Assembly (NCBI GenBank): GCA_037783545.1 | Contig: JBBELK010000634.1 | Location: forward strand, 1-64,000 | Length of the DNA stretch: 64,000 bases | Direction: 5' to 3' | DNA from: Henricia sp. BOLD:AAB3569 | Taxonomy: Eukaryota > Echinodermata > Asteroidea > Spinulosida > Echinasteridae | Part shown: positions 962 to 62,983 of the stretch, one piece after another | Layout of the letters: every line of letters begins with the position of its first letter | Numbering within the stretch: position 1 is the stretch's first letter | Translations under genes and position numbers: made by a program | Notes under the pieces: model-generated | Seen by the model: only the letters and a program-made list of their open reading frames with translations | Database searches by the model: none | What the model was told of the DNA's origin: nothing

Positions 962-2008
962 TTATCTGGGTGCACTGTTACCCGGCATCGCCTTATCAAG
1001 TAAGGTTCTTGCAAATTCTGTATCATCTGGTGGCTTAACCACAGGTTTGTTGTAGTATGTTGCAAATGTCCGAGCATTTGCCCAACCAACAGTTTTATTT
1101 ATAGTGTCAATAGAAACTCCACTTTTTCGAGCTGCTGTTGTAGCTGATGCACGCACGCTGTGCGGTTTAAAGCAATCGTCATCTATACCTGCATTCTTCA
1201 GTGTAGCTTTAATCCATCTGCTGATAGTGTCCTTTGATGCAGCTCGATGAGGTTTTGACACAGTCAAAAACAGTTTGGATTCTCCGGTTCTAACTGTACT
1301 TGTAAGGTGTAGATATTTCCGGAGCATTGTGACAACACAAAGTCTCTTGTCTCTTGTCTCAGCAGGAAAAACAATTCTGTTTAAATGAAAACCTGGCTTG
1401 GACTGTTTCAAAAGTCCCTGGATTTGAAACACACATTTGGATGCAGTTAATTGCATAAAGTTTGTGTCTATTAGATGAAGCGTTTGGACTCTCTGTCCTG
1501 CTAACAGTGCCATCAATGTGGCCAGTTGTGGAGTTAGCTGCTTGAGGTTGACGGTACCTTCATTAAAAGTTGCTATGTATTGCAACACAATATTAGCATC
1601 CCAAATTACTTTATATCGCGGTAAACTAGGTCGTAATTGAAACACTCCTTTAAGAAATCTACAAATCAAGGGATGTTTGCCAATACCAAGTCCGTTTGGC
1701 TGTGTGATAAATGCCGATAAGGCAGAGCGAGCTGTATTAATTGAGGTGTATCCAGCTCCTTGTTCAAACAGATCAGTAAAGAAATCCAAAATGTTTTTAA
1801 TTCTTGGAAACAGAGGATCAATATCCCGATTGGAACAAAACAATCTCCTTCTTTCCAGATCTGTTTTGTATTGTTTAATGGTACCGTCTCTCCATGAAGC
1901 TACCCCAATGGAGGCTGCTCTTGGCGATATCCCCTTGTTGTGGGTAAAAATACAGGGGTTGTAACACATAACTGCATTAATAGCGGGTACCACGCTTGAG
2001 TAGGCCAA
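962..2008 (-). CDS. DIRS-type tyrosine recombinase
   Basis: Intact 348-residue reading frame resembling the tyrosine recombinase (phage-integrase fold) of DIRS-like retrotransposons, which integrates the circular cDNA without a DDE integrase. Visible catalytic landmarks are the first arginine in the AGQRVQ segment (about residue 170), the HSVR box (about 283-286, the H-x-x-R of the family), and a terminal WANARTFATYY segment supplying the nucleophilic tyrosine. It overlaps the end of the RT frame by about 109 bp in a different frame, the usual compact DIRS arrangement. It has no internal stop, unlike the upstream gag and pol of the same element. It sits in the cytoplasm/nucleus of the host cell as part of the retroelement. 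Assignment rests on motif order and context; a Crypton is unlikely because RT and RNase H are directly upstream. Confidence 0.88.
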   Translation of the reverse strand: MAYSSVVPAINAVMCYNPCIFTHNKGISPRAASIGVASWRDGTIKQYKTDLERRRLFCSNRDIDPLFPRIKNILDFFTDLFEQGAGYTSINTARSALSAFITQPNGLGIGKHPLICRFLKGVFQLRPSLPRYKVIWDANIVLQYIATFNEGTVNLKQLTPQLATLMALLAGQRVQTLHLIDTNFMQLTASKCVFQIQGLLKQSKPGFHLNRIVFPAETRDKRLCVVTMLRKYLHLTSTVRTGESKLFLTVSKPHRAASKDTISRWIKATLKNAGIDDDCFKPHSVRASATTAARKSGVSIDTINKTVGWANARTFATYYNKPVVKPPDDTEFARTLLDKAMPGNSAPR

Positions 2009-3804
2009 TCTGGGGCTATTACTACTAACGTTGCTTTGTCCTCCTCAACCTTTTGGAGGACTCTGCTCATAAGTGAAAACGGAGGAAAGGCATAAGCCAT
2101 ATATCTTGACCAATTGATAGTAAATGCATCTGTGGCAAAAGAAAAAGGGTCAGGTCGCCAGGACACATAACGCTTCAGTTGCGCATTATGTCGAGTAGCA
2201 AATAAATCAATGTCGGGTTGTACTGTTAATTGCTCTAATGCATATTTGAGCATGTTTTCATTCAATTTCCACTCCATGTTATCTGAGAAATGTCTTGATT
2301 CCCAATCAGCTTTTATGTTATCTTTTCCTGGGATAAACATTGCTGTTAACCAGATACTGCGTGTTTCACACCATTCAAGCATTTCTCTTGTAAAAGAGTT
2401 GCATACATTGGAATGGGTACCTCCCATTTGATTGATGTGAGCGACAGCCGTACTGTTGTCCACTTTAAGCAAGATATGCTGATTATTTGTGGACGAGAAA
2501 AATGACTGTAGGCCATAAAAGGCTGCTTTAATCTCAAGTGAATTTATATGCAGTTGACTTTCACTGCTTGACCAGCGTCCACCTGTAGAGCCTTTATAAC
2601 AAATGGCTCCCCAGCCGAGCAAAGAAGCATCGGAATACATCTCACAATCTGGACTTTTGCGCATAATAACGTTACTTGTTTTTTCGATATTAATAATCCA
2701 CCATTGCAAATGTTGTTTTGCTTTATCTGATAATTGCATTTTTGCTTCATAGTCGCCTTCATTTTCTTTTAAGGCCTTAATCTTCTCAAGTTCTATTTGA
2801 CGATAGCGCAACTGACCATACGGTACAGCTGGAAAAACATAAACCATGCATCCTGTAACATGTGCCACATCTCTGATTGTTGGCTTATTGGTTCCATATA
2901 ATGTCTGATACGTAATCTTTAATGTGGTACTCTTCTCATTCGTCAATGAGACTCTCATACTTTGGGAGTTAATAACAAATCCCAAGAAAACAAATTTTTG
3001 AGTAGGCTTCAAAACTGATTTCTCAAGGTGGACTGTAAACCCAAGTCGGGTGAACAATGCCATTGTGTCCATCACATTCCTTTCACATTCCTGGTATGAA
3101 TTTCCCTGAAGGTAAGTATCGTCAATATATGCTACAGAAACTTGGCCCATTTTCCTCAGTGTCGCGTACACTGGCTTAAGCAACTTGGTAAAAATTCTGG
3201 GTGCTGACGCCAACCCGTTAGGCAAACAAGTATATTGATAGAGTTTGCCTCTCCACTCAAATCTGAGTAAATGTTGAAATTCCATGGCAATGGGCACTGT
3301 GTAATATGCATGACGTAAATCTAAAGACGCCATGAAACAGTTGGGCCGTAACACTTTGAGAACAGTTTGAAACGTGTCCATTTTAAAATGATGATATTCT
3401 ACGTAAGAATTCAACTTTTTTAAATTCAAAATTACTCAGAATGTTCCATCCTTTTTTGGGCGCACGAAAATCGTGGAAATAAATTCGCCTCTGGAGTGCT
3501 GGGCTTCCACAACCACCCGAGTTTCCAATAATTTAGAAATTTATAAATCTATAGCACTCTTTCCAAGTTCATTGAACTGGATTTCCCGTGGCTTTATGTT
3601 CTGTACGGGGGTTTTTGTAAGTTCGATTTTGTATCCTTTCACCAATTGAAGTATCCATTTATCAGATGTGATGGTTTTCCATACGTGGGAAAACTCTTTC
3701 AATTTACCTGCTTTAAATATATCAGGTTTTAACTCATTTGTTAAGCTTACCCCTTGCTTTGGGGGCATAATTAGGGCTTGGTGTTCCACCTCTTTGGTGC
3801 CCAT
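1900..3804 (-). pseudogene. DIRS-type reverse transcriptase-RNase H (two in-frame stops)
   Basis: Reverse transcriptase followed by RNase H. The downstream open part (3429 to 1900, 509 codons) shows the RT motif A aspartate in ASLDLRHAY, the YIDD catalytic box, an LGF motif, and RNase H acidic residues in YSDAS, SLEIKA, KVDNST and DNIKAD. A DIRS-typical C-terminal extension ending near PDWPTQAWYP follows. The frame continues upstream: IFVRPKKDGT and, further back, the frame from 3804 to 3541 belong to the same protein. Two stops interrupt it, TGA at 3438-3436 (in a TTC-TGA-GTA context where family members have Arg, so a CGA to TGA change is likely) and TAA at 3543-3541. The rest has no frameshift. 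The element is therefore probably unable to make its own RT. Confidence 0.85.
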
Positions 3805-23121: not shown

Positions 23122-23476
23122 TTAGGTCTTGCTAAGTTTTCTCACGGTCTATCACGGTATCCGTGACGGGCCGTCGGGGGAGCGGGTGGGAAGGGGCTGC
23201 TGAGTCCCGGAGGCTCAAAGGCGCACTACGGTTCGGCCCGCGATCTACCACGAATGCCAGTACGTTCTCTCCCGGCCCGTCACGTTCTGATGGGGTCCCT
23301 CACGTTTCTCAAGTTCTGATCAAGGTCTGACACGTTTTTCACGTTCTGTCATGGCTTTCTACGGATGAAACGTGGACGCCGGGCAACTTTGGAGCACGTT
23401 TGTGCCCACGGTATCAAAAGCAGGCCTCCCAAGCAATAGCAATCATTGTATCCTGAGACTTCGACGAGACAACATC

Positions 23477-24957
23477 ATGAATGCCCAAGATGAAGAAGAT
23501 TTTGTGTTTGCATGTTTGCTGGGTGCATACATCCAGTATTTGCGTCAGCAAGAAGAAGGCCAGCAGCAGTTGCAGAGAGGGAAGGCCAGAGTGCAGCAGG
23601 CAGGAAGAAGGCAAAGAAGGCGGATGAGAAGGCCAAGATCCATGTGGGTGCGCGAATGGTTATCGGAAGACAGAAGGCAGCAGCTGGGCCACTACCCAAC
23701 ATTTCTCACCAGAGAGCTCCGCATCGAAGATGTCAACGCCTTCCAGAACTATCTGAGGATGCCTCCAGAGCTCTTCGACGAGATCCTGGAAAGAGTAACA
23801 CCAGCCATCGAGAGACAAGACACGAAGTTCCGCTCTGCCCTACCACCTGGACTGAAGCTGTCATTGACTCTTAGACATCTGGCCACTGGTGACAATTACT
23901 CGTCACTCTCCTATGCGTTCCGGTGCAGTAAAGCAGCCATCTGCCATATGGTGCCAGAAGTGTGCAAGACCATCGTAGAAGCCTAAAAGGATGAAGTGTT
24001 CGCCGTTCCTGTGACGCCCGATGAGTGGAGAGCCCTTGCCCAGGAGTTTGAAGACAAGTGGAATGTGCCTCATGCGGTGGGAGTGAAGCATATTGCCATC
24101 AGCAAGCCACCCAACACAGGCTCCTTGTACCACAACTACAAGGGGTTTTTCAGTATCCCTCTCCTCGCCTTGGTGGATGCCCAGTATCGTTTCATATGGA
24201 TTGAAGTTAAGGGAGTGGGACACATGTCTGATGCCCAAATCTATAATGACTCAGAGCTCAGTGAACTCCTCGAAGAAGGCCGGATAGGGTTGTCACTACC
24301 ATGCCCTCTGCCCAACGATGACCAGCACCAGGACATCCCTTACTTCATCCTGGGAGACGATGCATTTGCCTTAAGAAGCTACCTGATGAAGCCGTATGGG
24401 AGAAGAGCGATGCCAAGAGAAAAACCCATCTTCAATTACCGGATCTCCCGTGGAAGACGTGTGGTGGAGAATGCGTTCGGGATCCTGGCCAAGCGATTCA
24501 GATGCTTCCTTGGAACTTTGGAACAGGGACCAGACACAGGTTAGTCTCATTATGTTTTCATTGAGACTTGTAATAATATTTGTAGTACATTTTCATGATA
24601 TATGTAAATAAATAGTTTAATGATGGTTATTTGTAATATTTTCTGCATGTATGATAAATAAATTTCAATTTCATTACAGTGCGAGACATTATTGAGGCTG
24701 CTGTCGTGCTCCACAACCTCCTGAGGAGAAGGGTTCCAGTCATCCCAGTGAACGAGGTGGACCATGAGGATGAGGAACACAATCTAGTCCCTGGCAACTG
24801 GAGAGATCAGGCCCAATGGCAGGACGTGAACGCACCACAAAAAGGAGGAAACAGATACACTCTGGACGCGAAGCAAGAACGGGAGTACCTTAAAAGGTAC
24901 TTCAACTCCCATGCTGGTGCTGTAGAGTGGCAGGACAGAATGTTCACTCCCCAGTGA
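23477..24957 (+). pseudogene. PIF/Harbinger transposase (HARBI1-like), one intron, broken
   Basis: DDE transposase of the Harbinger superfamily, cutting and joining the element with its MADF/Myb partner. Exon 1 is read from ATG 23477 (FACLLGAYIQYLR start, RMPPELFDEIL helix region) to 24539; exon 2 runs 24680-24957. A 140-bp intron has a GTTAGT donor at 24540 and a CATTACAG acceptor ending at 24679, phase-consistent (GPDT/VRDI). Family motifs: [24 protein letters not shown] (second catalytic Asp), SDAQI(Y)[20 protein letters not shown] (catalytic Glu) and LHNLLRRR. Two defects: TAA at 23984-23986 just before KDEVF, where a Tyr codon is expected, and HAVGVKHI where the family has a DGKH-type box, so the first catalytic Asp is gone. 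Confidence 0.9.
24540..24679 (+). other. Intron of Harbinger transposase
   Basis: 140 bp, AT-rich, GT at 24540-24541 and AG at 24678-24679. Joining restores a continuous reading frame across a conserved segment, which supports a real spliceosomal intron. Confidence 0.85.
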
Positions 24958-49043: not shown

Positions 49044-49969
49044 ATGTTTGAAGCACTAGAGGTGAGTTTGGTGCTCCGTATTTTCGTTTAGGAGGGTTTT
49101 ACTTCAATTTTACAAGAACGTTATAGTGGGGCCTTTTTATATTTCATGCTTTAATCGTATAAGCTCTTATTATAGGCATGAATTTCGTTGACGGGTCCGC
49201 CACTGAGATTCCGCGTGGGAGGTCTTTGAAAAAAAGAATAAATAAAATTCAAATGAAATTGTTCAAAATGTGTCACTCCCTGCAAACCCGCGGACCCCGC
49301 CCCCTTCCTTGTTCGATTCTTCACCTGAATTTGGTAATAAACGCCCAAGTCAGTTAATCATGCAGTCTCGGGTGAAGGGGTGGACTGCATAAGGCAGGAT
49401 AGCTCAAAGTTGTTGACTTGGTACATCGTGTATCCCTGGTGGGGTTTGCCTTGATGTTGGGCAAACAGTTTGCAGAATTTGCAATGCTAGTTTTAGAGAA
49501 ATAGTATTTTATTTCTGGAAATTTCATCCCTTCTTTAAATTACCTCAGTCACTGTACAAGTTATCCTACGTTTCCAGATCTTTGAAATCTTTTCTGGGCA
49601 AACCCAAGGGTCACATCATATGGAGGAGAGAGGGCAGAAAAGTAAGGCATTTTGCGTTTTTCCTGCATCTCGCATTATCGGACCGTGAATGTTTCAACCA
49701 ATCACATGGTTTCGCGCACCTTCCCTAGTGCTTAAACCTTATTTTCTGTCTGTTTTTCCCATATTGTTTGCCGCAGACATCAGCCATAAAACGGCACAAA
49801 GCCAGCAGGGCGGAGCTTCTGAAAGTCTGCCCCGAGACTGGCTACGACAGCATTGTGGCATACATAATGGCACTCCTTCGCAAGTATATCGTGGATATCA
49901 AAGAAAAACAGTTATATGCCAACTTAACGAAAAAACAGTCAAAAAAAGGTTTGCAGTCATTTCGCCCTA
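49044..49969 (+). CDS. Possible two-exon host gene (very tentative)
   Basis: A reading MFEALE at 49044-49061 is followed directly by a strong donor (GTGAGT at 49062). A good acceptor (TTGTTTGCCGCAG) ends at 49776. Joining in phase 0 continues as TSAIKRHKASRAELLKVCPE, TGYDSIVAYIMALLRKYIVD, IKEKQLYANLTKKQ before the sequence runs into the GGGCGAA minisatellite. The peptide is helical and basic, and not like a transposon protein that I recognise. The surrounding 48.5-49.9 kb has no obvious repeat. A downstream exon, if any, was not found, and the two-exon model could be chance. No function is proposed. Confidence 0.3.
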
Positions 49970-50150
49970 AAACCACTTCTCCCTGAACCATTTCGCCCTG
50001 AACCACGGCCTGTGCACGAAGTGGTTTTGGGGCGAAGTAGCATTTGGGCGATGTAGTGTTTGGACGAAGTGATTTGGGGCGAAATGGCACTCGGGCGAAG
50101 TGGTTTGGGGGCGAAATGTCACTTGGGCGAAATGGTTTTGGGGCGAATGG
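49965..50150. repeat. TTTCGCCC/GGGCGAA minisatellite
   Basis: Irregular ~16-30-bp units, first as TTTCGCCCT on the plus strand and then as GGGGCGAA(A/G)TGG, so the array is also a loose inverted repeat about 50010. Motif shared with 12882-12950. Confidence 0.8.
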
Positions 50151-50590
50151 AATTTTCGTCTCATGAGACGAAAACTAATTGTTTTACTCGTTTCTCAAAG
50201 ACTATAGCACTTTAGACAAAACCATTTCAGGGGAAGTTTTCTAAGGTCATCATGTTTATATTGTGTAAGTTAGGCGTAAATCTGTGAACATTTCTTATTT
50301 TCGAGATACCAATCATGTATACTGCCTTTAAGCACGGTGTGTTATTTTTAAAGTTTCAGTCTTCTTTTAATCATCTTGCTTCTCATGTAGGAATATGGTC
50401 GCTAATTGGAGATCTTAGAGTCTCTCTTGGGAATCGTCTTCGAAAGACGATTTTGACCCCTTCGCAGCGCAGGCTACCAGGAGACAGAGAGATGTATTTT
50501 CATGGGTGAATATAGCGTGGCTCCCAGCGTCCGATCCTGACGGCTCCGCCCCTGTCCCAGAAGATGTTCTGCTTGGAAATCGATCTCCAG
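50151..50590. other. Presumed 5' flank of the gypsy element, no LTR found
   Basis: Should hold the 5' LTR and primer-binding site if the element were complete, but no copy of the TGTTGTGTTGTTATAGCGCC start of the 3' LTR was found, so the 5' end is probably lost. Confidence 0.4.
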
Positions 50591-50594
50591 ATTT

Positions 50595-51203
50595 CAAAGC
50601 GCTTCGTTTTCGGAGCTTCCGCCTCCTCCACCGTTCCTAGCTACACCAGGAAATCCTCCGATTCCATGGAGACGGTGGAGAAGCCTTTTTGAGACATTTA
50701 TCGTTGCTTCTGGGGCCGCTACGTACGCCGATGACCGCCGTCGCGCGATACTGCTACATTGCTTAGGACCGGAGGGGCAGCGCATTTTCGCTACACTGCC
50801 ACCTTTAAACGCGCTGGAGTTCGCCGACGCCGATCCAACATCGTCCGACAGTTCTGCTATTCCCTCTTTTGGTGAGACTTTGCGGAGATTGCAGGCACAA
50901 TTTCTGCCTGCGTTAAACATCGTCGCCGAACGGTATAGATTTCGCCAGAGAGGTCAAATTAAAGGTGAATCGGTGGACGAATACGTCCCTACATGCGACT
51001 TTGGTTCCATGGCGGATGAAATGATTCGAGATCAGCTCGTGGAGAAGACTTCGACTGATCGCATACGTGAAAGACTTCTCCTGGAACCAAAGCTCACTCT
51101 CATGTCAGCATTGACTCTAAGTCGTCAAATGGAGGCAGCTACTGTATTCGCGAGTCTCGGTCAATTGCTCAGGGAGTTGGATTTGCACAATCCAGTTCCA
51201 TAA
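50595..51203 (+). pseudogene. Ty3/gypsy Gag capsid region
   Basis: One frame, read from a PPPPFLATPGNPPIPW segment, continues through RRRAILLHCLGPEGQRIF, FRQRGQIKGESVDEY, CDFGSMADEMIRDQLV and IRERLLLEPKLTL to the stop at 51201. This order is the capsid region of Ty3/gypsy Gag proteins of metazoans, which assemble the particle in the cytoplasm. Between VDEYV and CDFG the family usually has about ten more residues, suggesting a small deletion. The N-terminus is not defined; no start codon is proposed. The zinc knuckles lie in the next frame, after 51203. Confidence 0.75.
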
Positions 51204-54200
51204 TGGTGAATGCCACATACACTCGTAAGTCCAAGCCATTTTCCAAGTCCAGTGCACATAAGTCAAAGCCTAAACCTTTCACCACACTGGCTCGTCCGCA
51301 AACCGTGTCCCGCTCCATACAGTGCTATCGCTGTGGCTCTCCTAGTCACAAAGCCAACTCTCCTGCATGCCCAGCAATCGATGCTGTTTGTACGGCATGT
51401 TCCAAAAAGGGACATTATGCTCGTGTGTGCAAGTCAACGGCTAAAGTTAAGAGTGTTTCTGTTGAACAATTCGACTCCGACTCGAAGGATGAAGTGCAAA
51501 TCCTCACGATTGGAGCTCCCAAAGCACGAAACCTTATTTGCAGCGTCATTCTAGGCCAAGATGCACCAGTTTTCGATACGGGTTCCCCTGTTTCGATTTT
51601 GCCTGTGTCGGTTTTTGACAAGTTCTTCGTTCGTGATGCACTACAACCATCACTCGCAAAACTGACTACATACCTGCACGAACCAATCAAGGTGCGCGGT
51701 TATTTCAGTACCATGGTTCGTCATGCCGATAATACTAATCACGCAGTCAGGGGCGATTTCTACGTTGTTGAAAAAGGTGACCCGATTCTTGGCCTGGACC
51801 TCATCCAGTCACTTAAGCTTACACTGGATGGTGACAAAGTCATTCCAATACGTCATGTTTCTCCGGAATTTACACCGACGCCTTCAGCAGAGCCGATGTC
51901 TTCGTCTACAAACAAGACTACTCCAACATTGCCTACAAATGCCACAAAGTATGCGGAATCAATTCACGCCAAGTTTCCCAAGCTATTTCAGGATGGAATT
52001 GGCACAGCTCGCGGTTTTGCTCACTGCGTCAAGGTTCGACCTGATATTCCGCCAGTACAACAACGTTTGCGCAGACTTCCTTTCGCGGTTCGCGATAAAG
52101 TTACGGCTGAACTGAAACGTCTGGAGGATGCTGCCATCATTGAGCGTATTGATGCTAGCGAGTGGGTTTCGCCCATAATCGTCTCCTACAAGAAATCTGG
52201 AGATATTCGTCTCTGTGTGGACCTTAGACAAGTTAACCGCGCAGTTGTCATAGATAGTTTTCCCATCCCAGATGTTCAAGAATTATTCGCGGAACTCAGA
52301 CATGCCACTATTTTCAGTACGTTGGACCTAAACTCCGCTTACCACCAGCTGGAGCTGGCTGAACAGTCGCGTGATTACACTGCGTTCATCACGCATGAGG
52401 GATTGTTTCGTTTCAAACGTGTTTGTTTCGGTCTGGCTTCGGCGCCAGCTGCGTTCCAGAAACTAATGTCGTCAGTACTAAGTGGGTTTCCAGGTGTTCA
52501 AGCCTACTTAGATGATGTAGTCGTATACGGCCGAGATCAGGCTGAGCACGACACGCGTCTTCACGCAGTCCTTCAACGTATACACTAGGGTCGGATTGAC
52601 CCTCAATACTGCTAAGTGTCAGTTTAATTTGTCCTCAATCTGCTTTCTGGGTCACACTGTTTCTGCGCAAGGCCTACAACCAGATCCAGCCCATGTGGAC
52701 GCTATCAAACATGCACCACGTCCCATGGATGCTGCTACGATGCGATCTTTTCTTGGGCTCGCATCATATTACGCTCGATTCGTGCCTGACTTTTCTACTG
52801 TAGTGGAGCCACTACGTGTCATGATTCGTAAAGGAGCCGAGTTCACATGGTCTCCTGCAGCCTTGCAGAGTTTCGAGACGATCAGAGAACTTATTGCTCG
52901 GAGTGTTACCCTTCGACTTTTTGACCCGCAATTGCCTGTGATTGTGTCTACTGATGCATCTGCTTACGGACTTGGTGCCGTTCTATTGCAAGTAGACAAT
53001 CGCGAATATCCAGTTGCGTTCGCATCCCGCACACTTTCCTCCGCGGAACGCAATTACTCCGTCGGGGAAAAATAAGCCTTAGCTTGCGTATGGGTGTGCG
53101 AAAAGTGGTTTCAGTACTTGTGGGGACGTCACTTCACCCTTCGAACTGATCACAGGCTCTTGTGACACTGCTGTCATCTCGTGGGTCAGGACGCCAGTCT
53201 ACGAGGATTGCTCGATGGTCCACACGGCTCATGCGTTTCAACTACACTGTCGAGTATTGCGCGGGTGTCAACAATTCAGCTGCGGACGCTATGTCGCGAC
53301 TTCCTATTCCTACGACGACAACGATGATGAAGTAATCATCCAATCTTTAAACGTGCTGCTGATCGAATCCACAGTCAGCAAAAGTGACTTACAACATGAG
53401 ACACGCGCGGATTCCACCCTTCAACAGGTGATTTCGCATGTGGTCAAGGGCTGGCCACATAAGTCACGAATTGATACAGCGCTTCGATCATATCATATGA
53501 TCAGGGATGAACTTTCGATCATCGCCGACTGCTTGATGCGCGGTGATCGATTCGTCATTCCAGCCAATTTACAGCGTCACTTGATCACCCTAGCGCATGA
53601 GGGCACACCAAGGAATCGTGCGATGCAAACAACGCTTACGAGATTGTTACTGGTGGCCGACAATGGATCGCATGGTTGAAGAGACAATTCGCAACTGCTT
53701 ACCATGCCAAAGCAGTGACAAAACAGCTCGTACGAACACGCCTCTACAGCCCGTTCCTTTGCCTGCAGGTCCATGGCAGAAGGTCGCGATTGACATAACA
53801 GGCCCTTTTGCTGATGCACCTCGCGAATGCCGCCACGCCATCGTCCTAATAGACTATTACAGCAAATGGCCAGAGGTCGCGTTCGCTTCGCAAGTTACTT
53901 CGCGCACAGTTTTTAACATGCTATCTTCGATTTTCGCCCGTGAAGGCTTGCCCCAAGAACTCGTTTCTGACAACGGTTTAAAAACTTTCTCCACAATCTG
54001 GGGATTAAGCACAGCAAGTCTTCTCTGTATTACCCCAGAGCTAATGGGGAAGTTGAACGATGGAACAGAGTTCTGAAGCAGACACTCCAGATTGCTGGAT
54101 TATTTGTTATTATTTATTTACCACATCCAACAGCGGAGAGACCGCCAATTACAGGAATGGGAGCAAGTGTGGTTGAGTGCCTTGCTCAAGGGCACAGGTG

Positions 54201-54825
54201 CCACAACCCGTCGCGGCCCGGAATTGAACCTACATTCTAGTACTAGCACAGAACTTAAGTTCGACGCACTAGACCGCTCGGCCATAACACCCCTATGAAA
54301 ACGGCCACTTTAGACTTACTGACCGCGTACCGATCTACACCTCACCAGACTACAGGGAAATCCCCATCTGAACTGCTTCACGGTCGCAAAATGGCAACTC
54401 GCTTGAACATCAGTCATGACACCCCTTTGAGCGCCAATGATCCATCTGTTCGCGATCGCGTCGCTCACAAACAGGAACTGTCTCGCAAAACTACGGACCG
54501 TAAACGTGGTGCAACTCTGCCCAAGTTTCGTATTGGTGACTATGTCCGAGTTAAAAAGCCAACTCTTATGTCTAAGAGTTCACAGAAATTCTCTGCGCCA
54601 CAGTTGATCGTGAAGTCTAAAGGACCGTTCACGTACATGCTCAAAGACGGACGCGTTTGGAACGCATCCAAGCTCAGTGTGTGTCCAGCTACTCTCATGA
54701 CCCCCACTAACCAGCCAAAAACTGCTACACAACCTGGTCCACAGGTTCCAACGCCACCCGCAGTTTTGCGCCGCTCTACTAGGATGCGCACACCTCCAAT
54801 CTGGACAAAAGACTATTGCATGTGA
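51203..54825 (+). pseudogene. Ty3/gypsy polyprotein, frameshifted
   Basis: The first intact block (51203-52588) carries two zinc knuckles (CYRCGSPSHKANSPAC, with six rather than four residues before the last Cys, and CTACSKKGHYARVC), a protease site FDTGSPVSIL, and the RT with VSPIIVSYKKSGDIRLCVDL, LDLNSAYHQL and the catalytic AYLDDVVVY. A frameshift at about 52585 leads to RT thumb and RNase H (VSTDASAYGLGAVLL) to a stop at 53073 after GEK. Further frameshifts lie near 53165, 53325 and 53600. Integrase follows, with a CLPCQSSDK zinc-finger part, IDITGPF (first Asp), VSDNG (second Asp), then after a frameshift YYPRANGEVERWNR (Glu). A SINE splits it at 54099. The C-terminal part with GDYVRVKKP and KGPFTYML ends at 54825. 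Not functional. Confidence 0.9.
54099..54295 (-). mobile_element. V-core SINE with tRNA-Leu-like head
   Basis: Minus-strand head GTGTTATGGCCGAGCGGTCT (A box) and GGTTCAATTCC (B box, 54220-54230) resemble a tRNA-Leu gene. CCTTGAGCAAGGCACTCAAC at 54171-54191 matches the V-SINE core known from fish and other animals. A short ATT/TAA-rich tail ends at 54099. Inserted in the integrase after LKQTLQIAG. Confidence 0.85.
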
Positions 54826-55173
54826 ACTTTTAATCACAACTCCACCGTGAACTTCATTGCATTTATTTGACTTTTTTTCTAAATCACTTTATTCAATGCA
54901 TAATTCAACACTTTTACAGGTTCCTCTCGTCTGAACTTTTGATAAATTCTGCATAATTACATTGTACCATTGTTGAAATCGTCTCCCCGGTTAAAAAAAT
55001 TCAGGAAATCCTTAATCTTGTTGCACAATACCTTTGGACATACAAGTTGCAATAAGGCAAAATACTTTTTTTTTAGTGTCAAAGCATGGACACATTTAAG
55101 AGAGGGGGAGATGTTGTGTTGTTATAGCGCCCTCGGGAGGGCTTTGGCGGAGAGCTTTCTTGTGGCGGTCTCC
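54826..55173 (+). mobile_element. Ty3/gypsy 3' region: polypurine tract and truncated LTR
   Basis: After the pol stop, an AT-rich 3' UTR ends in a polypurine tract AGAGAGGGGGAGA (55099-55111), followed directly by TGTTGTGTTGTTATAGCGCC at 55112, the expected TG start of an LTR. The LTR is cut at about 55173, where the RTE-like LINE begins. No terminal CA is seen. Confidence 0.65.
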
Positions 55174-57033
55174 TCAATCGTTTGAGTGGCCGGCTTCAGG
55201 TATACGGGTCCTCAAAGACGCCAACTTCCTCCACTGCTTTCTGTCACTCGCTGCAACAGCCATTTCTTCGAGACTCGTCGACTCTCCGGATACTGCTAGA
55301 TAATCTTCCTGCACGCAATTTGTCCATGTTTTACGTGGCCTGCCCTTCGAACGCTTCCCGCGTGGTGGTTTCCACTGTAACAGTCTCTTTGGCAGCCGCT
55401 CAGGTGGCATTCTCGACACGTGCCCAAACCAGCGCAATCTGCTCCTGGAGATGAAGCTAGTTACCGCATCGATTCCCGCTCGCTGTAAGACCTCAGCATT
55501 GCTCTTCATATGCTGCCACTTGATCCGTAGGATCCGTCTCAGACATCGCCGATGGAAGACCTCCACACGATGTACGTGACGCTTGGTAGTTGACCAGGTC
55601 TCGCTACCATACAGGAGCACCGTCAGTACAGCCGCCCGGTAGATTCTGATCTTAGTATTAGTGGCGATGTTCCTGTTGTGCCATACCTTAGCTTACCGAG
55701 CGAGTTGTAGGCTCCAGCTGCCTTGCCGATCCTTGAATCAAGATCTTTGTCAATGGTCCCATCAGCAGAAATCACCGATCCCAGGTACGTGAAGTTACTG
55801 ACCTGCTGAACAGTAATCCCATTCACAGTGACGTCAACAGTACCGTCCTCTGTGTACGGACGCTGACCTGACTGCTTGGAAACAGCCATGGTCTCCGTCT
55901 TGCTGCTGTTGATTCGCAAGCCGGCGTATTCCGCGTACTTGGAGATAAAATCAGTTGATTCCTGGAGACCCTCCTTGGTGCTATCCAGCACCGCCATATC
56001 GTCGGCGTAATCAGTGTCCATGACCACCTCCTCCTCTGTGTCGGTCGAACTCTACTTCAGCATCAACCCGCGAGAGATGGTCTTATTACTCTCGGCGAGC
56101 TGAGCCACCCAGTTCAGGCACACATTGAAAACCGGTGGACCCTGGATATCACCCTGTCCCGTACCACTGATTACCTTAAACCACCTTTCTTTGAGGGCAC
56201 TGTTAGTGCTGTCAGGCACAGTGTCGACCCCACCGTGCCTGACAGCACTAACGGTGCCCTCAAAGAAAGCCTTTATGATGTTGATGTACTTTCCAGGAAC
56301 ACTCTACTTCTCCCAGACCTCAGCAAACAGAGAAGTCAGCGGACCAATAAGACCCTCAGATCCAAACCGGAGTTGTTCGTTCGAGATCCCATCAACTCCA
56401 GGGGCTCTTGTGAGTCTTCAGTCGAGCGAGAGAAGTGCCTATCTCCTCACTAGTCGGTGCTGGGTCATTATCAGAGAGGTACCTGAAGCAGTCCTCTGCA
56501 GGGAGATTTTCCGAGTCCAGATCCATCAGATTAACTGTGGTCGCAGTTGGTTTCAGGAGCTCAGAGAAGTAATCTGCCCACCGCTCTCTTTGCTGCTCAG
56601 GATCTGAGATAGGGTTTCCGTCTGTGTCGCGGACAGCAGCAGTCCTTCGATTGCGGTTGCCAGACATTTGCTTTATCCGCTGCCAGATCTCTCTTTGCTT
56701 GCCGTAAGAGGCCGCCTCCTCCAGATCAGTGGCCAGACGGTCCGCCAACCGCTGGTCGTCTTTACGAGCTGATTTCTTTACCAGTTTGTTCAGTCGCGAG
56801 TACTCAGCACCACCCTCGGGTGCCTTCCTCTTCACTGCTGCTCGTTGTACTATTAGGTCCTTGGTCGGCATGGATAAGTGCTGCTCTCGCGCCTTCCTAG
56901 ACCGAGTTCCGAGAACCTCCAGTGACACAGAATCCACGACATCCCTGATCTGAGTCCACTTGCCCTCAAGATTCTCCTCCGGTGATAACGACGCGAACCT
57001 GTTTGTAAGAGTAACGTTGTACTTTCCAACCAT
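55174..57033 (-). pseudogene. RTE-like LINE, RT and C-terminal region
   Basis: Minus-strand pieces in order: linker with EIWQRIKQMSGNRN and RERWADYFSELL (57033-56392), an RT middle with VISGTGQGDIQGPPVFNV in a short broken part (56300-56050), the catalytic TDYADDMAVL with LRINSSKTETM and NFTYLGSVIS (56027-55623), and the C-terminal LLYGSETWSTTK, HRRCLRRILRIKWQ, RLRWFGHVSRMP and GRPRKTW (55620-55174). The order is that of RTE/BovB-like or related LINEs. Frame breaks occur near 55622, 56040 and 56390, and a palindromic duplication lies at 56185-56269. The endonuclease is absent, so it is 5' truncated at about 57083, which is typical for target-primed integration. Confidence 0.8.
56185..56269. 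repeat. 35-base hairpin inside the LINE RT
   Basis: CTTTCTTTGAGGGCACTGTT...(35 bases) and its reverse complement at 56235-56269 with one mismatch and a 15-base loop. It adds sequence in a place where related RTs have a short loop between the finger and the SGxxQG motif. Confidence 0.85.
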
Positions 57034-57083
57034 CGTCCGGTCACGCAGGTTCTCAAGAGCTGGTAGGACCCTTGTGTGTTCAC

Positions 57084-58970
57084 TACACCCCTTTACTAAA
57101 CCAGGAAATCACTAAAAGACTCGAAGAGGGTTCGGTGGAGCTTTTAGGAGCTGTTGATGCCGTGGCTCCCCTTAGGTGCGTGAATGCTTTGTCAATCTAG
57201 CCAAAAAAGGGTACATGAAGGGTCCGAACCTTTGGTGCAGGGACTCGCCATTCAAACTAGTCTCGTTGAGCGACATTGTAAAATCAGTTCAGAAAGGGGG
57301 ATGTTTTCAAGCACGAATGATGCCCAAGGATAAAAACAAATTTTGCTCAGTAACGAATCCAAAACCTTTTGCGGTTTCGAGTGGGGAGGCTACTTTTTTT
57401 TCAAGATACAGCACCTTTAAAAACAGTGCATATGTTTACTCAATTGGGTTTTGACAATAATGACAATATACTCAATATGTTTTGACAATTGGGTTTTGTC
57501 TCTCTACCTGGTTAAAAACCAGGGGCATCCATACTGAAATTTGGATTGATGATCGTTTCGTGGGCGAAGCTTGCCCATCACGCATCCCTTAAAACAAAAT
57601 TTAAAGCTGACGAACGTCTTATTTTGTTTCCCCCAGGGCACACTTGAAATGCAAGACGACACCGCATATTCAAGGGCAGGAAGGGCCTTGAATTTTGTTT
57701 GCTATATGCAAACGAAGTTGGGTTTCTTTATCAACTTTGATAAGGGGATGGGTATATGCTTTCGTTCTGGATTCCGGAAAAGAAAAAACGATAATTTGCG
57801 GAGATCAGAGAGGAAACCCTATTGACAGGGGATGTGTCTCTCAAGATGATGCAGTGGTTCATAGGAAAGTGCCACAGCCTAATGCTAGTTTTTCCGGCTG
57901 CAGCTTTCTTTGTCAGGTAATGTTGCCTCCTTCTGACGCATCTCGACGACATCTACCCCGTATGTTTGACGGACGCCGTTCGAGATGAAGTGCTTTTTTG
58001 GCGTTTCGTCGACTCCTGACCCGAGCCAATTCCTTGGAGAAAGCAGAGACACATGGAGCTTCGTTTAAGTTCAGACGCCTCTGGATACAAATGGGCAGAC
58101 GTTCTCGAGCTTGGCCAAGAATCTATATCATTTGGTGACTACTGGCCAGAAGACGTCAGAACCGCGACAGACGTCTGCTTCAAAGAGGCGCTTGCCCTTT
58201 ATTTTTTGCTTATATCCACCATCGATTTGCTTTGGGATAAACGTGTTGACGTTTGGGTGGAATCCATGGGTCTTTTTAACGTTTGGAACGGTTACAAAGC
58301 AAGATCTCACAATTTACTGAAGGTGATGAAGCTCGTCGTTATGCTGGCTGTTGAGGCAAATTTCGAAGTGGACTCCAACGGACGCTAACCCCGCCGACAC
58401 TCCATCCAGACGGCTTTCTAGAGCAGATGCGCGTCTGGCCGCCCACTCGTGGCAGCTTTTTCAGAGAGAATTCGGTGGATCGGCCGGTTTTAAGTGGGAT
58501 TTAATGGCACTTCCGTCCAATGTGCAGAAGGGGAAGGATGGTCGCCCTCTTAAATTATTCTCGAGGTTTCCGGTCCATGGCTCTGCCGGGGTAAATATCT
58601 TTGCTCAAGCATGCCCTCGGCAGGAGAATTTGTACGCGTTTCCGCCGTTCGTCCTTATCCCAGAACTGGTCAAATTGTTTCTTAAATAGGGCGAGCTGGA
58701 GGTTACTATTGTAGTCCCCAGGCATCAGCATCCGAGACCTTGGTGGCCTCATCTCAGCTCGTTTGCAACGCAGGCGCTTCGTATAGCATCGAAGGGCCAG
58801 AAAGGTGTCTTTGAATTCCTGTCTCGGCATGGCTTTCGGCTCGACGCAGTAGGTCTCCCCTTTGAAGTATGGGCTTTGAGATGCTTCTTCCCAGGTGATA
58901 GCCACATTGCGATGGAACCCCAGCTTCCGAAGAGGCGGTCGGTAATGCTCGTTTCAGACTCGATGTATAT
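57084..58970 (+). pseudogene. Ngaro-type RT-RNase H and C-terminal region, decayed
   Basis: Plus-strand fragments of a DIRS-superfamily pol: EITKRLEEGSVELLGAVDAV (57100), NLWCRDSPFKLVSLSDIVK (57219-57284), GFEWGGY in another frame (57373), QLGF/YSIGF, then LDSGKEKTIICGDQ (57768), RLSSDASGYKWADVLELGQE (58056, RNase H), FKEALALYFLL, NPADTPSRRLSRADARLAA (58390), FKWDLMALPSNVQKGKDG and VNIFAQACPRQENLYAFPPF (58590). The last blocks are hallmarks of Ngaro elements. Many frameshifts; the (Y/F)xDD box was not found, and about 150 bp of RT core around 57455-57620 look deleted. Upstream end is truncated by the LINE at 57083. Confidence 0.75.
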
Positions 58971-59918
58971 ATAAGGACTTGGTGGCTTTCAGTTGGCCTG
59001 CTTCGCTAAAGATGGAACATATAGCGTTAATGGAGGCGCAAATGTTTTGGTGTTGTGCGAGATTCTCGCTTCGGCGTGCGAGTATAGTCAGAGGGATGTC
59101 GCGGTTCTTCATTGTGGGATAAACGACATTAGTTGAGGCAGCACAGCAGTTGCAGTGCGGAGTCTGATTAAGGCGATGGTGCCACGCATCTAAACTCCTC
59201 AAAAAAAGTTCGGAAAGTCAACTTAAGTTTGACTGACGATTTCTCTCTTGTTACTAAATCATTTCCCTTGAATTTGGTATCATTGGAAAGCCCTGTTATT
59301 CTTCTTTACAGTGATGTGTCATTTGTTATGATTAATCAATTGGGGGATGTGCAGTATAGCGGAATACAGGGGTGAGTGGAAAGTGAAATGTCACAAAATT
59401 CACCGCTAATGTCATGCAGTGCATTCCCATTTGCTTGGAGGATGGGAGTGTGTCAATGCACTTTTTGACAATAGCAATGCATTTTGTGACATTTCACTTT
59501 ACATCCACCCCCGTATTCAGCTGTGCTGCACATCCCCTAATTGCTTAATCATAACAAATGACACATCATCGTAAAGAGGAATAACGGGGCTTTCCAATTA
59601 TATACAATTCAAGGAAAATTAATTTGCAACAAGAGAGAAATCGTCAGTCAAACGTGACTTTCCGAACTTTTTTTGAGAAGTTTATGTCATCGGTTCAAAG
59701 AAGTGAAATTTTTCCTTTCCTTAATGTGCCGAACGAAGAACACCCGTATGAATAGGGTTGTCGCCTCAGCGAACGCGGCGTTGAAGGAAGTTTGTGCTGA
59801 GCTAGGGTGGAGCTACCTAGGGAACGATCACATCACGCAGCTTGACCTTAGGGACGAAGTGCATCTCGCGTTTTGGGGCAGCGTCAAACTGCACAGAAAG
59901 CTCCAGTTGTTTCTTTAG
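58930..59918 (+). pseudogene. Ngaro-associated SGNH hydrolase domain, split by a MITE
   Basis: Following the RNase H region, one frame reads MLVSDSMY (Ser in place of Gly in the GDS motif; catalytic Ser codon 58960), then GGFQLACF and NGGANVLVLCEILASACEY, DVAVLHCGINDIS (Asn of block III at 59122), VRSLIKAMVPRI, and after the MITE NAALKEVCAELGWSYLGND and LDLRDEVHLAFWGS (Asp 59853 and His 59862). The order Ser, Gly, Asn, Asp-x-x-His is that of SGNH/GDSL esterases. Two in-frame stops (58972 and 59134) interrupt it. SGNH-type hydrolase frames are known from some animal Ngaro elements; the role is not established. Exon or frame boundaries with the RNase H were not determined. Confidence 0.75.
59193..59682. 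mobile_element. 490-bp palindromic MITE inside the SGNH domain
   Basis: Ends AACTCCTCAAAAAAAGTTCG and its complement, TA on both sides (59191-59192 and 59683-59684). About 230-bp arms meet at 59430-59450. Half copies are at 7719-7966 and 8197-8443. Confidence 0.92.
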
Positions 59919-59942
59919 TTAGATCTCTTCTCCAGGCACGTT

Positions 59943-61170
59943 TTGGCGTCACCCCGAGTCAGCGAACCATGTAATCTTCGGGATTTACAGATAGAGTTGG
60001 CTAACAGGTTAAAGCAGCTGGACAATTTGGTGGACAGTCGGCCCTACAACAGGCAGAAGACCAGCCTTAAAACCAGCTTAGGCACGTTCCTTAAGCCCCC
60101 GTCACACTTATTCGGAATTAGCAGGAATCAAGCAGAACCAGCCGGAATGACAAATTTTCAAAATTCGTGCCACGTTCGGGCGGGAATTTCAAACTGACCA
60201 ACATTCTTACAGCTTTGTAAGAATGCCGTTCGAATACTTATAATGCGCTTCGAGCCGTGCTGAAAAATGTGTTTATAATGTAACACGAATGTCCCGAGTG
60301 TACCAAGAATCCCACCGGAATGGTCCCCGATAGGGTATAAAACGCTGCCGAATCTGGCATTTTCATCAGTCTCAGCCCAGACCATGTTGCTTTGCGGCAG
60401 CTAGCTGCGTTTTCATGCGATTCGGTGGTGTTCTGAATTACGTCCGGACTCATTCAAGGGCCAATCGGGACGTTCCGACTGCATTCGAGATGTATTCGAG
60501 CGGCAATAGAAATATTCAGAAGGCATTCGAAGTGCATTCCAGCTGAACTATTTTAGTATCAAAATAGATTCCGGCAGCAATCGAGATACACTCGAGGTGC
60601 ATTCCGGCTCATTCGAGGCACATTCGGAACATTCTGGCAGGATTGCCATGGCTTGCCATTTCGATTTTTCCCTCGAACGGGATCAGAATGTTTCGAATTC
60701 TGTTTGAATGCCGTAAGAATAGTTAGAATGCAGTCAAAATGCAGTTAGAATATACTTCGAATGCCGTTCGATATTTCTCCTCTTCGATCGAATGCACCTC
60801 GAATGTTTTGAGCATGAGCAAAACATTCGGGCCGGCCACAGGAATGGGCCCAAATGTTTGGAATGCACTCAGAATGCAGTCAGAATTTTTAGAATGCACT
60901 TCGAATATCCCGGAATACACGAGGAAGTTTTATCCCGACGGCATTCCGGCTCAATCCGCCTCTAGTGTGACTGGGGTATTAGGGAGAACCATCGTTCAGG
61001 TTACCACATCACGGATAGTGCTATTCTTGAAGCAGCCACTCTGGAGGACATTGTCAAGTTTTTGATTGATCGCGATTCGAGGGGTAGAACGCAGGTACAT
61101 GCACTCGGTTACAGGAATTTGGGGAAGCACGGCTCTTTTCCTTGTAGGTGTAATCAACAGTTTTGGCGAT
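59943..61170 (+). pseudogene. Ngaro-type tyrosine recombinase, N-terminal part, split
   Basis: The frame begins in the region ASPRVSEPCNLRDLQIELAN (59943) and continues through LKQLDNLVDSRPYNRQKTSL before a Harbinger-type MITE (60094-60978). After it, in another frame, come ATLEDIVKFLIDRDSRGRTQ and KHGSFPCRC (61036-61150). An (A/T)PEDV.(R/K)FL..KD..G.T.VH segment with a Cys pair is typical of the N-terminal SAM-like region of Ngaro recombinases. The catalytic R...HxxR...Y part is not visible, so the gene is truncated at about 61170. It lies 25 bp downstream of the hydrolase stop. Confidence 0.6.
60094..60978. mobile_element. Harbinger-type MITE with TTA duplication
   Basis: Ends AGCCCCCGTCACACT and (complement) TACCCCAGTCACACT; TTA at 60091-60093 and 60979-60981. 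Interior has many CATTCGA and GCATTC words, and a TATA-like GTATAAAACGCTGCC (60335-60349), suggesting it is an internal-deletion derivative that keeps a promoter. Open frames here arise from the repeats. Confidence 0.85.
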
Positions 61171-61894: not shown

Positions 61895-62983
61895 ATGCCA
61901 CGAAAACCCAGGGCTTCCAGCAAGGGCAAGGGACGCCGCAAAGGCCGAGAAAATGGAGAGGACAGCCCGAGGGGACCAACACCTCCACCAGACGACCTCC
62001 CTCCAGCAGATGGGGCCGACCAAGATCTTCACAGAGGAAGGGCGCCCGCAGGAGGAGGAAGACCAGCCGCAAGAGGTCGTGGAGGAGGCCGACGACGCTG
62101 CTGACGGGGAAGCTACTCCATCCCCGGGGTCCCAGGGGTCCAAGGCAAAGAAGGCGATGATCCTGTCAAACCTTAATAAAGAAGAACAAGAGGAGGTAAC
62201 TGTTCTACCGTATTTATACGTGATATTCCTTTATTAATAATTACTCTAATATATCGTCATTTTACAATTATTTGGTATGGTGTTCAAGGTTTTGATTTTG
62301 TATACATTACAACTATATTATTATTATTCTAGGTGGCCCTCTTTCTAGAACAACACGACTTCATCTACAATAAGAGGCGGAGGGACCACATGTTTGCCGC
62401 CAAGAAGAACAGGGAGTGGGAGGACCTGGACAAGAAGATGGGCAAGGAGGTCAAGGCCCTAACCACCTTCTTCGAAAGCATCAGGACTCAGATTGGCAAG
62501 CTGATGCGGACCAAGAGTGGCCAGGCAAGCAAGGAGTTCACTGAGAGGCAGCATTGGATCTGGAACCGCTTCTAGTTCCTGATTCCGCACATCAGCCAGG
62601 TCACGAAGAGGAACATGCAGAGCCTCAAGGCTGCTACCACCCTGCCGGACCTGGGAGATCCTGAGGACAATGACCAGGACGTGGACCAGCAGGAACCGAC
62701 TGTGACCACGCCACCGTTCACCACCACCCCAAGTTCCACCATCACCAAGACCAGCACCTCCAGAGGTGGCAAAGGAAAGGGGAGAGGGCCAGCCATGGAG
62801 CAAGAAGATGACTTTGTCGCGGAGATGGCCAGCTCGAAGGAGAGACAGGAGAAGCTGCTCCAGATCCTCCAACCCCCTGTCTATGCCTCCTCCTCGTCAC
62901 TGGCAGCAGACCTACCCACAGCAAGGCCAGTGGCAGCAAGATCCGTTTCAGTGGCCCCCAAAGCCTGTGGGTCCTCCTGCTAG
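61895..62983 (+). pseudogene. Second Harbinger-type MADF/Myb-like protein, broken
   Basis: Start MPRKPRASSKGKGRRKGR at 61895, basic. The acidic part is in another frame (EEEDQPQEVVEEADDAAD from about 62020), so a frameshift lies between. It continues as SNLNKEEQEE to a GTAACT donor at 62196; exon 2 starts at 62333 after TTATTATTCTAG with VALFLEQHDFIYNKRRRD, ...KIGKLM-like LMRTKSGQASKEFTERQHW, WIWNRF, then TAG at 62573, then FLIPHISQVTKRN and a Thr/Ser-rich tail to 62983. The sister gene at 25595-27258 has FQFL in place of F-stop-FL, so a CAG to TAG change is likely. Expected to be a nuclear DNA-binding partner of a Harbinger transposase; no transposase is present nearby in this window. Confidence 0.75.
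62196..62332 (+). other. Intron of second MADF/Myb-like gene
   Basis: 137 bp with GTAACT donor and TTATTCTAG acceptor; phase 0 (EE/VALF). The position differs from the intron of the sister gene. Confidence 0.75.

What the first reader, a model, noticed from the sequence alone, without database searches (positions are those of the whole stretch)
57084..61170. Ngaro-type element carrying an SGNH-hydrolase domain between RNase H and recombinase
Seen: Ngaro-like RT/RNase H blocks, then an open region with Ser-Asp-Ser, GG, GIND and RDEVH in the SGNH order, then the start of a Ngaro recombinase. Known: SGNH/GDSL esterases use these blocks, and some animal Ngaro elements carry a hydrolase frame. Inference: the hydrolase is an element gene under past selection and not a host passenger. 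The role of a lipid or acetyl esterase in a circular-cDNA retroelement is still open.
Basis: partly seen in the sequence, partly recalled or inferred. Interest (0 to 1): 0.75.

Follow-up and report, generated by a model that had tools for sequence, protein, structure and literature searches.

The report
Retrotransposon polymerase fused to an esterase
The window holds a dead, much-interrupted copy of a family of jumping elements whose DNA-copying enzyme carries an esterase-like domain at its end; better-kept relatives in the same genome show that selection kept this domain, so it is a working part of the element although its job is unknown.

Summary
Confirmed, with wider borders. The window copy is a decayed Ngaro-type tyrosine-recombinase (YR) retrotransposon spanning about 49.8-61.2 kb: gag and RT N-parts lie at 49777-50652, cut off by nested transposons. 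An SGNH hydrolase domain follows RNase H at 58927-59166 and 59673-59915 (41 and 88 bits; shuffles at most 1.1). A 494-bp insert splits it; another copy has the empty site. All five catalytic residues survive.

A hydrolase ORF after the YR is in print for amphibian Ngaro elements. Here it is fused to the polymerase, before an ALOG-type YR: a new variant of a known kind. Substrate and role are inferred.

The parts
49777..49944 (+). gag-like remnant (5' part of the same element copy)
   Evidence: same-genome gag profile 50.6 bits, iE 4.1e-17
50419..50652 (+). N-terminal part of the RT ORF, cut off by nested transposons
   Evidence: profile positions 21-98 of 323, 70.3 bits; RT resumes at 57066 with positions 155-317
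50541..57065 (.). nested foreign sequence inside the RT gene (approximate borders): LTR-type gag/pol ORFs at 50541-54825 (+) and non-LTR-like ORFs on the minus strand (55623-57108); family labels recalled, Pfam did not name the minus-strand ORF
   Evidence: ORF lists; Pfam; split of the RT profile
57066..57574 (+). RT palm remnant with WIDDRF (57542-57559)
   Evidence: profile hits 47.6 and 95.9 bits; motif
57756..58370 (+). RT thumb and RNase H
   Evidence: 268 bits
58366..58911 (+). end of RNase H and post-RNase H domain (FPPFVLIP 58639-58662)
   Evidence: 247 bits
58927..59166 (+). SGNH hydrolase, N-terminal half: catalytic Ser codon 58960-58962, Gly 59035-59037, Asn 59122-59124
   Evidence: 41.2 bits, iE 6.7e-13; residues aligned, positions from motif coordinates
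59191..59684 (.). 494-bp insert with long inverted repeats (MITE-like) and TA at both ends, splitting the SGNH frame
   Evidence: inverted repeats; absent from L004, present in L003
59673..59915 (+). SGNH hydrolase, C-terminal half: catalytic Asp 59853-59855, His 59862-59864 (the hit overlaps the insert's last bases)
   Evidence: 87.7 bits, iE 3.6e-27
59991..60098 (+). YR ORF, first part
   Evidence: 17.4 bits, iE 8e-07
60092..60980 (.). second insert, splitting the YR (approximate borders)
   Evidence: absent from L003 and L004
60978..61160 (+). YR N-terminal (ALOG-type) DNA-binding domain; similarity to sister copy L003 runs on to 61430
   Evidence: 68.7 bits; Pfam ALOG 20.3 bits, below its cut-off of 26.6; L003

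Best explanation
A dead copy of a Ngaro-type YR retrotransposon in which an SGNH hydrolase is the C-terminal domain of the RT/RNase H polyprotein, upstream of the recombinase. SHOWN: homology, domain order, conserved catalytic residues, purifying selection, split direct repeats in sister copies; a predicted SGNH fold for a relative. INFERRED: in working copies the enzyme cleaves an acyl or acetyl ester inside the cell. Its nearest sequence relative of known structure is the esterase of the zebrafish LINE ZfL2-1, which binds acidic phospholipids; the domain here is also basic. So the likeliest role is to dock the Pol-bearing RNP or cDNA complex on a membrane and let go by hydrolysis, before the recombinase inserts the circular cDNA. 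My odds: element-encoded SGNH domain under selection 0.97; catalytically active 0.85; lipid/membrane role 0.4. The number below is for identity plus 'active esterase serving the element'.
Against: No activity data. P0006 has Phe for the catalytic Ser and L020 Gly for the Asp, so some copies may be inactive. SGNH diverges faster than RT/RH (mean pair identity 0.36 against 0.49, 91 pairs of 14 rows). Pfam PF13472 scores shown (16.8-31.2 bits) are under the curated 32.9, though two relatives carry it as a precomputed domain. Synonymous sites are saturated (mean pS 0.83), so omega is rough, and the +1-frame control also has pN < pS in 24 of 36 pairs for SGNH (2 of 36 for RT/RH). Charge says little: basic proteins also bind nucleic acid.
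Confidence: 0.75

Rival explanations
1. The enzyme removes O-acetyl or other small acyl groups from a host protein, RNA or glycan (modification editing or anti-silencing) and does not act on membrane lipids.
Against: Best sequence match of known structure is the lipid-binding ZfL2-1 esterase. For ZfL2-1 the authors saw no histone deacetylation (PMC3905857).
Confidence: 0.3
2. The SGNH domain is a non-catalytic scaffold, for example for RNA/DNA binding or dimerisation of Pol.
For: Basic domain; single copies with a lost catalytic residue (P0006, L020).
Against: G, N, D and H are invariant and S is 16 of 17 among the public relatives, and all five are kept even in the dead window copy.
Confidence: 0.15
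3. The hydrolase is a passenger: a host gene caught once by this copy, or a chance pattern.
For: None beyond the decayed state of the window copy.
Against: At least 55 of 71 same-genome RT/RH places carry it; public relatives too; selection; trees with the same main groups; control scores.
Confidence: 0.01
4. The element is better called DIRS- or PAT-like than Ngaro: it has an ALOG-type YR and a post-RNase H domain alignable with the Dam-like region of a DIRS element in the same window.
For: ALOG 56-65 bits in three of three YR ORFs scanned; ALOG ties to DIRS1-type recombinases (PMC3537659, passages); hhalign probability 98.2 to the ORF at 1900-3432(-) through the post-RNase H region.
Against: Split direct repeats A1...B1-A2...B2 and an SGNH domain, both given for Ngaro in PMC9210276. 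PAT elements also have split direct repeats, so this does not exclude PAT.
Confidence: 0.3

Closest known systems
Ngaro-like elements of Xenopus (DIRS-53_XT, DIRS-54_XT; PMC9210276, passages seen)
   Same: YR retrotransposon; split direct repeats A1/B1-A2-B2; gag, RT/RH, YR plus an SGNH hydrolase domain
   Different: There the hydrolase is a separate ORF, said to lie after the YR; here it is fused to the end of the RT/RH ORF, before the YR. A repeats are 60-69 bp here with 117-173 bp between A2 and B2, against A 236 bp and B 152 bp in DIRS-53_XT.
ALOG-bearing DIRS1-type retroposons (Iyer and Aravind 2012, PMC3537659, passages seen)
   Same: YR with an ALOG-type zinc-ribbon DNA-binding domain; RT/RH upstream; marine animals among hosts
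   Different: They carry a degenerate adenine methylase, which is uncertain here; the text has no mention of SGNH or Ngaro (term counts 0).
SGNH esterase in ORF1 of CR1/L2/RTEX LINEs (ZfL2-1, PMC3905857, passages seen)
   Same: SGNH domain in a retrotransposon; nearest PDB sequence match (E 2.1e-6 and 5.5e-5)
   Different: In LINEs it sits in ORF1, upstream of RT, with a coiled coil; here C-terminal to RT/RNase H in a YR element
GDSL ORF3 of bdelloid LTR retrotransposons and Athena (PMC5408684, passages seen)
   Same: Captured SGNH/GDSL enzyme in a retroelement
   Different: Separate ORF3; other classes of element; that paper does not mention DIRS or Ngaro (term counts 0)
SymbioDIRS-Dnmt3 (PMC5890265, passages seen)
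   Same: An enzyme fused into the Pol ORF of a DIRS-order element, with a separate YR ORF
   Different: Cytosine methyltransferase, not a hydrolase; dinoflagellates

Membership tests
Ngaro retrotransposon | Split direct repeats A1-[ORFs]-B1 A2 B2 | tested here: met
   B1/B2 pair (76-97 bp, 95.9-100%) downstream of YR in 9 of 18 copies; A1 matching A2 in 4 of 4 copies with upstream DNA; similarity of 4 of 6 near-identical copy pairs ends at B2. All in sister copies; not seen in the window copy, which is broken up.
Ngaro retrotransposon | YR with R, HxxR and Tyr downstream of RT/RNase H | tested here: met
   Alignment of 8 same-genome YR ORFs; R and HxxR in 8, Tyr in the 7 that reach it (L012 stops short); RT, SGNH, YR order in 19 of 22 loci. 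The window copy keeps only the N-terminal part.
Ngaro retrotransposon | No DIRS-type methyltransferase domain | tested here: inconclusive
   Pfam Dam matches 1 of 30 aligned members at E <= 1 (0.0025), but hhalign aligns the post-RNase H region with that of the DIRS element at 1900-3432(-), which scores Dam 0.0023.
Ngaro retrotransposon | RT groups with named Ngaro RTs | not tested
   No named Ngaro reference sequence was fetched.
DIRS-like retrotransposon | Inverted terminal repeats and internal complementary region | tested here: inconclusive
   Self-comparison of 18 copies (repeats of 40 bp or more, 85% or more) showed direct B1/B2 repeats in 9 and inverted ones only in L025, outside the coding part; the 5' ends lay outside these stretches.
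SGNH/GDSL hydrolase | Blocks with catalytic Ser, Gly, Asn and Asp-x-x-His in order | tested here: met
   all five in the window
SGNH/GDSL hydrolase | SGNH alpha/beta fold | tested here: met
SGNH/GDSL hydrolase | Pfam PF13472 above curated cut-off (32.9 bits) | tested here: inconclusive
   8 of 8 own-genome domains match at E <= 0.1, best 2.4e-7; the one with bits shown has 31.2. Precomputed on P0005 and P0006. No hit for the window pieces.
SGNH/GDSL hydrolase | Esterase activity | not testable with these tools
   Needs biochemistry
CR1/L2-type LINE ORF1 esterase | Esterase in ORF1 upstream of EN-RT | tested here: not met
   Here it follows RT/RNase H in a YR element

The most novel reading that the evidence does not exclude
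A lineage of YR retrotransposons found in an echinoderm and a mollusc gained, perhaps once, an active SGNH esterase as the C-terminal domain of its polymerase and has kept it. Replication through circular cDNA would then need an ester-cleaving, membrane-linked step, reached independently of the LINE ORF1 esterases and of the separate hydrolase ORF of amphibian Ngaro elements.
Probability: 0.3. Interest if true: 0.7.

Novelty: new variant of a known kind. Interest (0 to 1): 0.48.

Why it matters
SGNH esterases recur in unrelated retroelements without a known reason. Here the enzyme is tied to the polymerase itself, evolves under clear purifying selection, and copies with open frames exist, so its role becomes directly testable: a catalytic-serine change separates 'enzyme needed' from 'scaffold'. 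More distant YR-type loci without a detectable SGNH domain in the same genome (7 of 7 sampled) give natural controls.

Tried and rejected
Led nowhere: megablast of 56-64 kb against phages (none); viral contigs and genome-contig scans with A2 (none confirmed); protein search with the YR piece (6 candidates, none at E <= 0.01); Rfam at gathering threshold (none); Pfam on window pieces. Literature searches for Ngaro with SGNH hydrolase, hydrolase, SGNH, esterase or echinoderm, and for DIRS with GDSL: in the listings and the passages I opened I saw no SGNH fused to RT/RH in a Ngaro element; subscription papers are not held. Goodwin and Poulter 2004 and Poulter and Butler 2015 were not seen, only as cited in PMC9210276, so prior description there or in Repbase is possible.

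Rejected: host passenger and chance. A first tree (36 rows; SGNH label needing 2 changes, one in 25% of bootstrap trees) held a wrongly framed window row and long-branch rows. I rebuilt it with the right frame (26 rows) without P0019, P0023, P0025, P0029, P0031, P0032, the 1966-3057 row, P0030, P0033 and P0034; the label then needed 1 change (80/86). P0035 was in neither tree. 'No SGNH' for P0016, P0026, P0027 and P0028 rests on where the protein ends; a separate ORF is not excluded. In the SGNH tree group B is weak (43/20). A shorter SGNH alignment (168 codons) gave omega 0.092 then 0.041 in the log.

I gave it 71 of the 150 rows (matches reaching residue 214 or beyond of 227, identity 49-100%) and 63 of the 150 rows, itself capped at 150 of 667 candidates, so 55 is a lower bound. 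Of the 16 misses, the window, its duplicate C727 (L002), L003 and C1051:399339 (L024) do have SGNH; five are C624 array copies; seven were not examined.
Full report
WHAT IS THERE. The finding asked for SGNH profile support and for other copies. Pfam alone finds no SGNH domain in the window pieces. A protein search with 58330-59187 (X at stops) found 15 relatives. In 12 of them RT/RNase H runs on into an SGNH domain; P0015 (partial) and P0016 end before it, and P0008 diverges at that point. P0005 is from the bat star Patiria miniata. A second search added 19 proteins, among them one from the limpet Patella caerulea with the first SGNH blocks (P0022). A profile of the relatives' SGNH domain hits the window at 58927-59166 (41.2 bits) and 59673-59915 (87.7 bits); 20 shuffles gave at most 1.1 bits and the reversed window 1.9. 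Catalytic Ser, Gly, Asn, Asp and His are all present.

INSERTS AND TRUE EXTENT. The gap between the two SGNH halves is a 494-bp insert with long inverted repeats. The same-genome copy L004 has neither this nor the second insert in the YR (about 60092-60980); L003 has only the first, so I take the first to be older. Profiles made from same-genome copies then found the missing 5' part of this element at 49777-50652, on the same strand and with profile ranges that complement those at 57066-57574. Hence the element spans about 49.8-61.2 kb (similarity to L003 up to 61430) and was split by LTR-type and other insertions. The finding's start at 57084 is where the nested sequence ends, not where the element begins.

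SISTER COPIES. With a 94-aa query 150 of 285 candidate places were scored and all 150 matched at E <= 0.001. Twenty stretches of 9.5 kb were read. One search scanned 26 loci (L003-L028) on one strand; L004 and L006-L008, not turned to the proper strand, gave no row. In the other 22, several of them near-identical to one another, RT/RH is followed by SGNH in 22 and by a YR in 19. These were chosen by a query that held about 15 residues of SGNH, so I repeated the search with RT/RH and post-RNase H sequence alone and with SGNH alone. Of 71 RT/RH places that reach the post-RNase H end, 55 have a listed SGNH hit within 400 bp, median gap 28 bp. By contrast, 7 of 7 distant YR-type loci sampled (28-37% identity) show no SGNH hit in the 3.5 kb fetched.

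WHAT KIND OF ELEMENT. Three of three YR ORFs scanned score 56-65 bits to Pfam ALOG (cut-off 26.6), a domain traced to DIRS1-type recombinases (PMC3537659, passages). Eight aligned YR ORFs share R and HxxR, and the seven that reach it have the Tyr (HxxR and Tyr are given for Ngaro YRs in PMC8547959). Downstream of the YR a direct repeat B1/B2 occurs in 9 of 18 copies. In 4 of 4 copies with upstream DNA fetched, a 60-69 bp A1 (94-100% identical) matches A2 right after B1. Similarity of near-identical copies stops at the end of B2 in 4 of 6 pairs. This A1-ORFs-B1-A2-B2 layout is that given for Ngaro (PMC8547959, PMC9210276, passages), but A2 and B2 are 117-173 bp apart here. PAT elements also have split direct repeats (PMC9210276), no named RT references were fetched, and the post-RNase H region aligns with the Dam-like region of a DIRS element. 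I therefore say 'Ngaro-type' and leave the finer placement open.

SELECTION AND HISTORY. On nine non-redundant copies with open frames, omega as last logged is 0.083 for SGNH (182 codons; first logged 0.114) and 0.085 for RT/RH/post-RH (430 codons; first logged 0.094). For SGNH the free model has lnL -5068.6 against -5372.2 for the best of five tried values of kappa with omega 1. pN < pS in 36 of 36 pairs for both. In the +1 frame this holds for 2 of 36 pairs (RT/RH) and 24 of 36 (SGNH), the latter with nearly equal means, pN 0.467 and pS 0.489. Synonymous sites are saturated, so the size of omega is rough but its direction is not. Recent duplicates (dS 0.00-0.06) have too few changes to tell. 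On the RT/RH tree the 17 SGNH-bearing and 4 SGNH-less rows need one change (80/86; two in the earlier, faulty tree); the SGNH tree gives the same three groups, one weakly. I read this as one old gain followed by descent together; horizontal transfer is not excluded.

COMPARED WITH WHAT IS KNOWN. PMC9210276 states that amphibian Ngaro elements have a hydrolase ORF after the YR, of no proven function, citing works I could not read. The fused position before the YR and the ALOG-type YR differ from, or are not mentioned in, the passages I saw. The searches listed no paper that I saw to describe this order. It is a new variant of a known kind, not a new kind.

Noticed in passing
window 962-3435, minus strand: A DIRS1-type element with long open frames: RT/RNase H (511 aa) with a weak Dam methylase match, and a 360-aa YR ORF; the SGNH profile has no hit there.
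   Followed up: partly
L009-L013, L016 and L020, just after the RT DDRF motif: In 7 of 10 loci looked at, the RT frame is broken by a short stretch ending in ..cag (mostly ttgcag), as a spliceosomal intron would be; it is open in L017, L018 and L023.
   Followed up: partly
G000:C624:204980-233058: Six matches, the last five at 5,109-5,110 bp spacing: a tandem array of element pieces, cause unknown.
   Followed up: no
L027, L028 and dozens of similar places (rows near E 4.8e-5): A numerous lineage lacking most of the post-RNase H region and with a broken RT, yet keeping SGNH parts and, in L028, a B1/B2-like repeat.
   Followed up: partly
P0015: A Myxococcota MAG protein that is an RT/RNase H of this eukaryotic type; probably contamination.
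   Followed up: no
window 62333-62572 (+) and 23369-24544 (+): MADF DNA-binding ORF (Pfam 1.3e-6) and ORFs that look like a Harbinger transposase (recalled, not tested).
   Followed up: no
G000:C727:225844 region (L002): 99.94% identical duplicate of window 57190-60471: haplotype or recent duplication.
   Followed up: no
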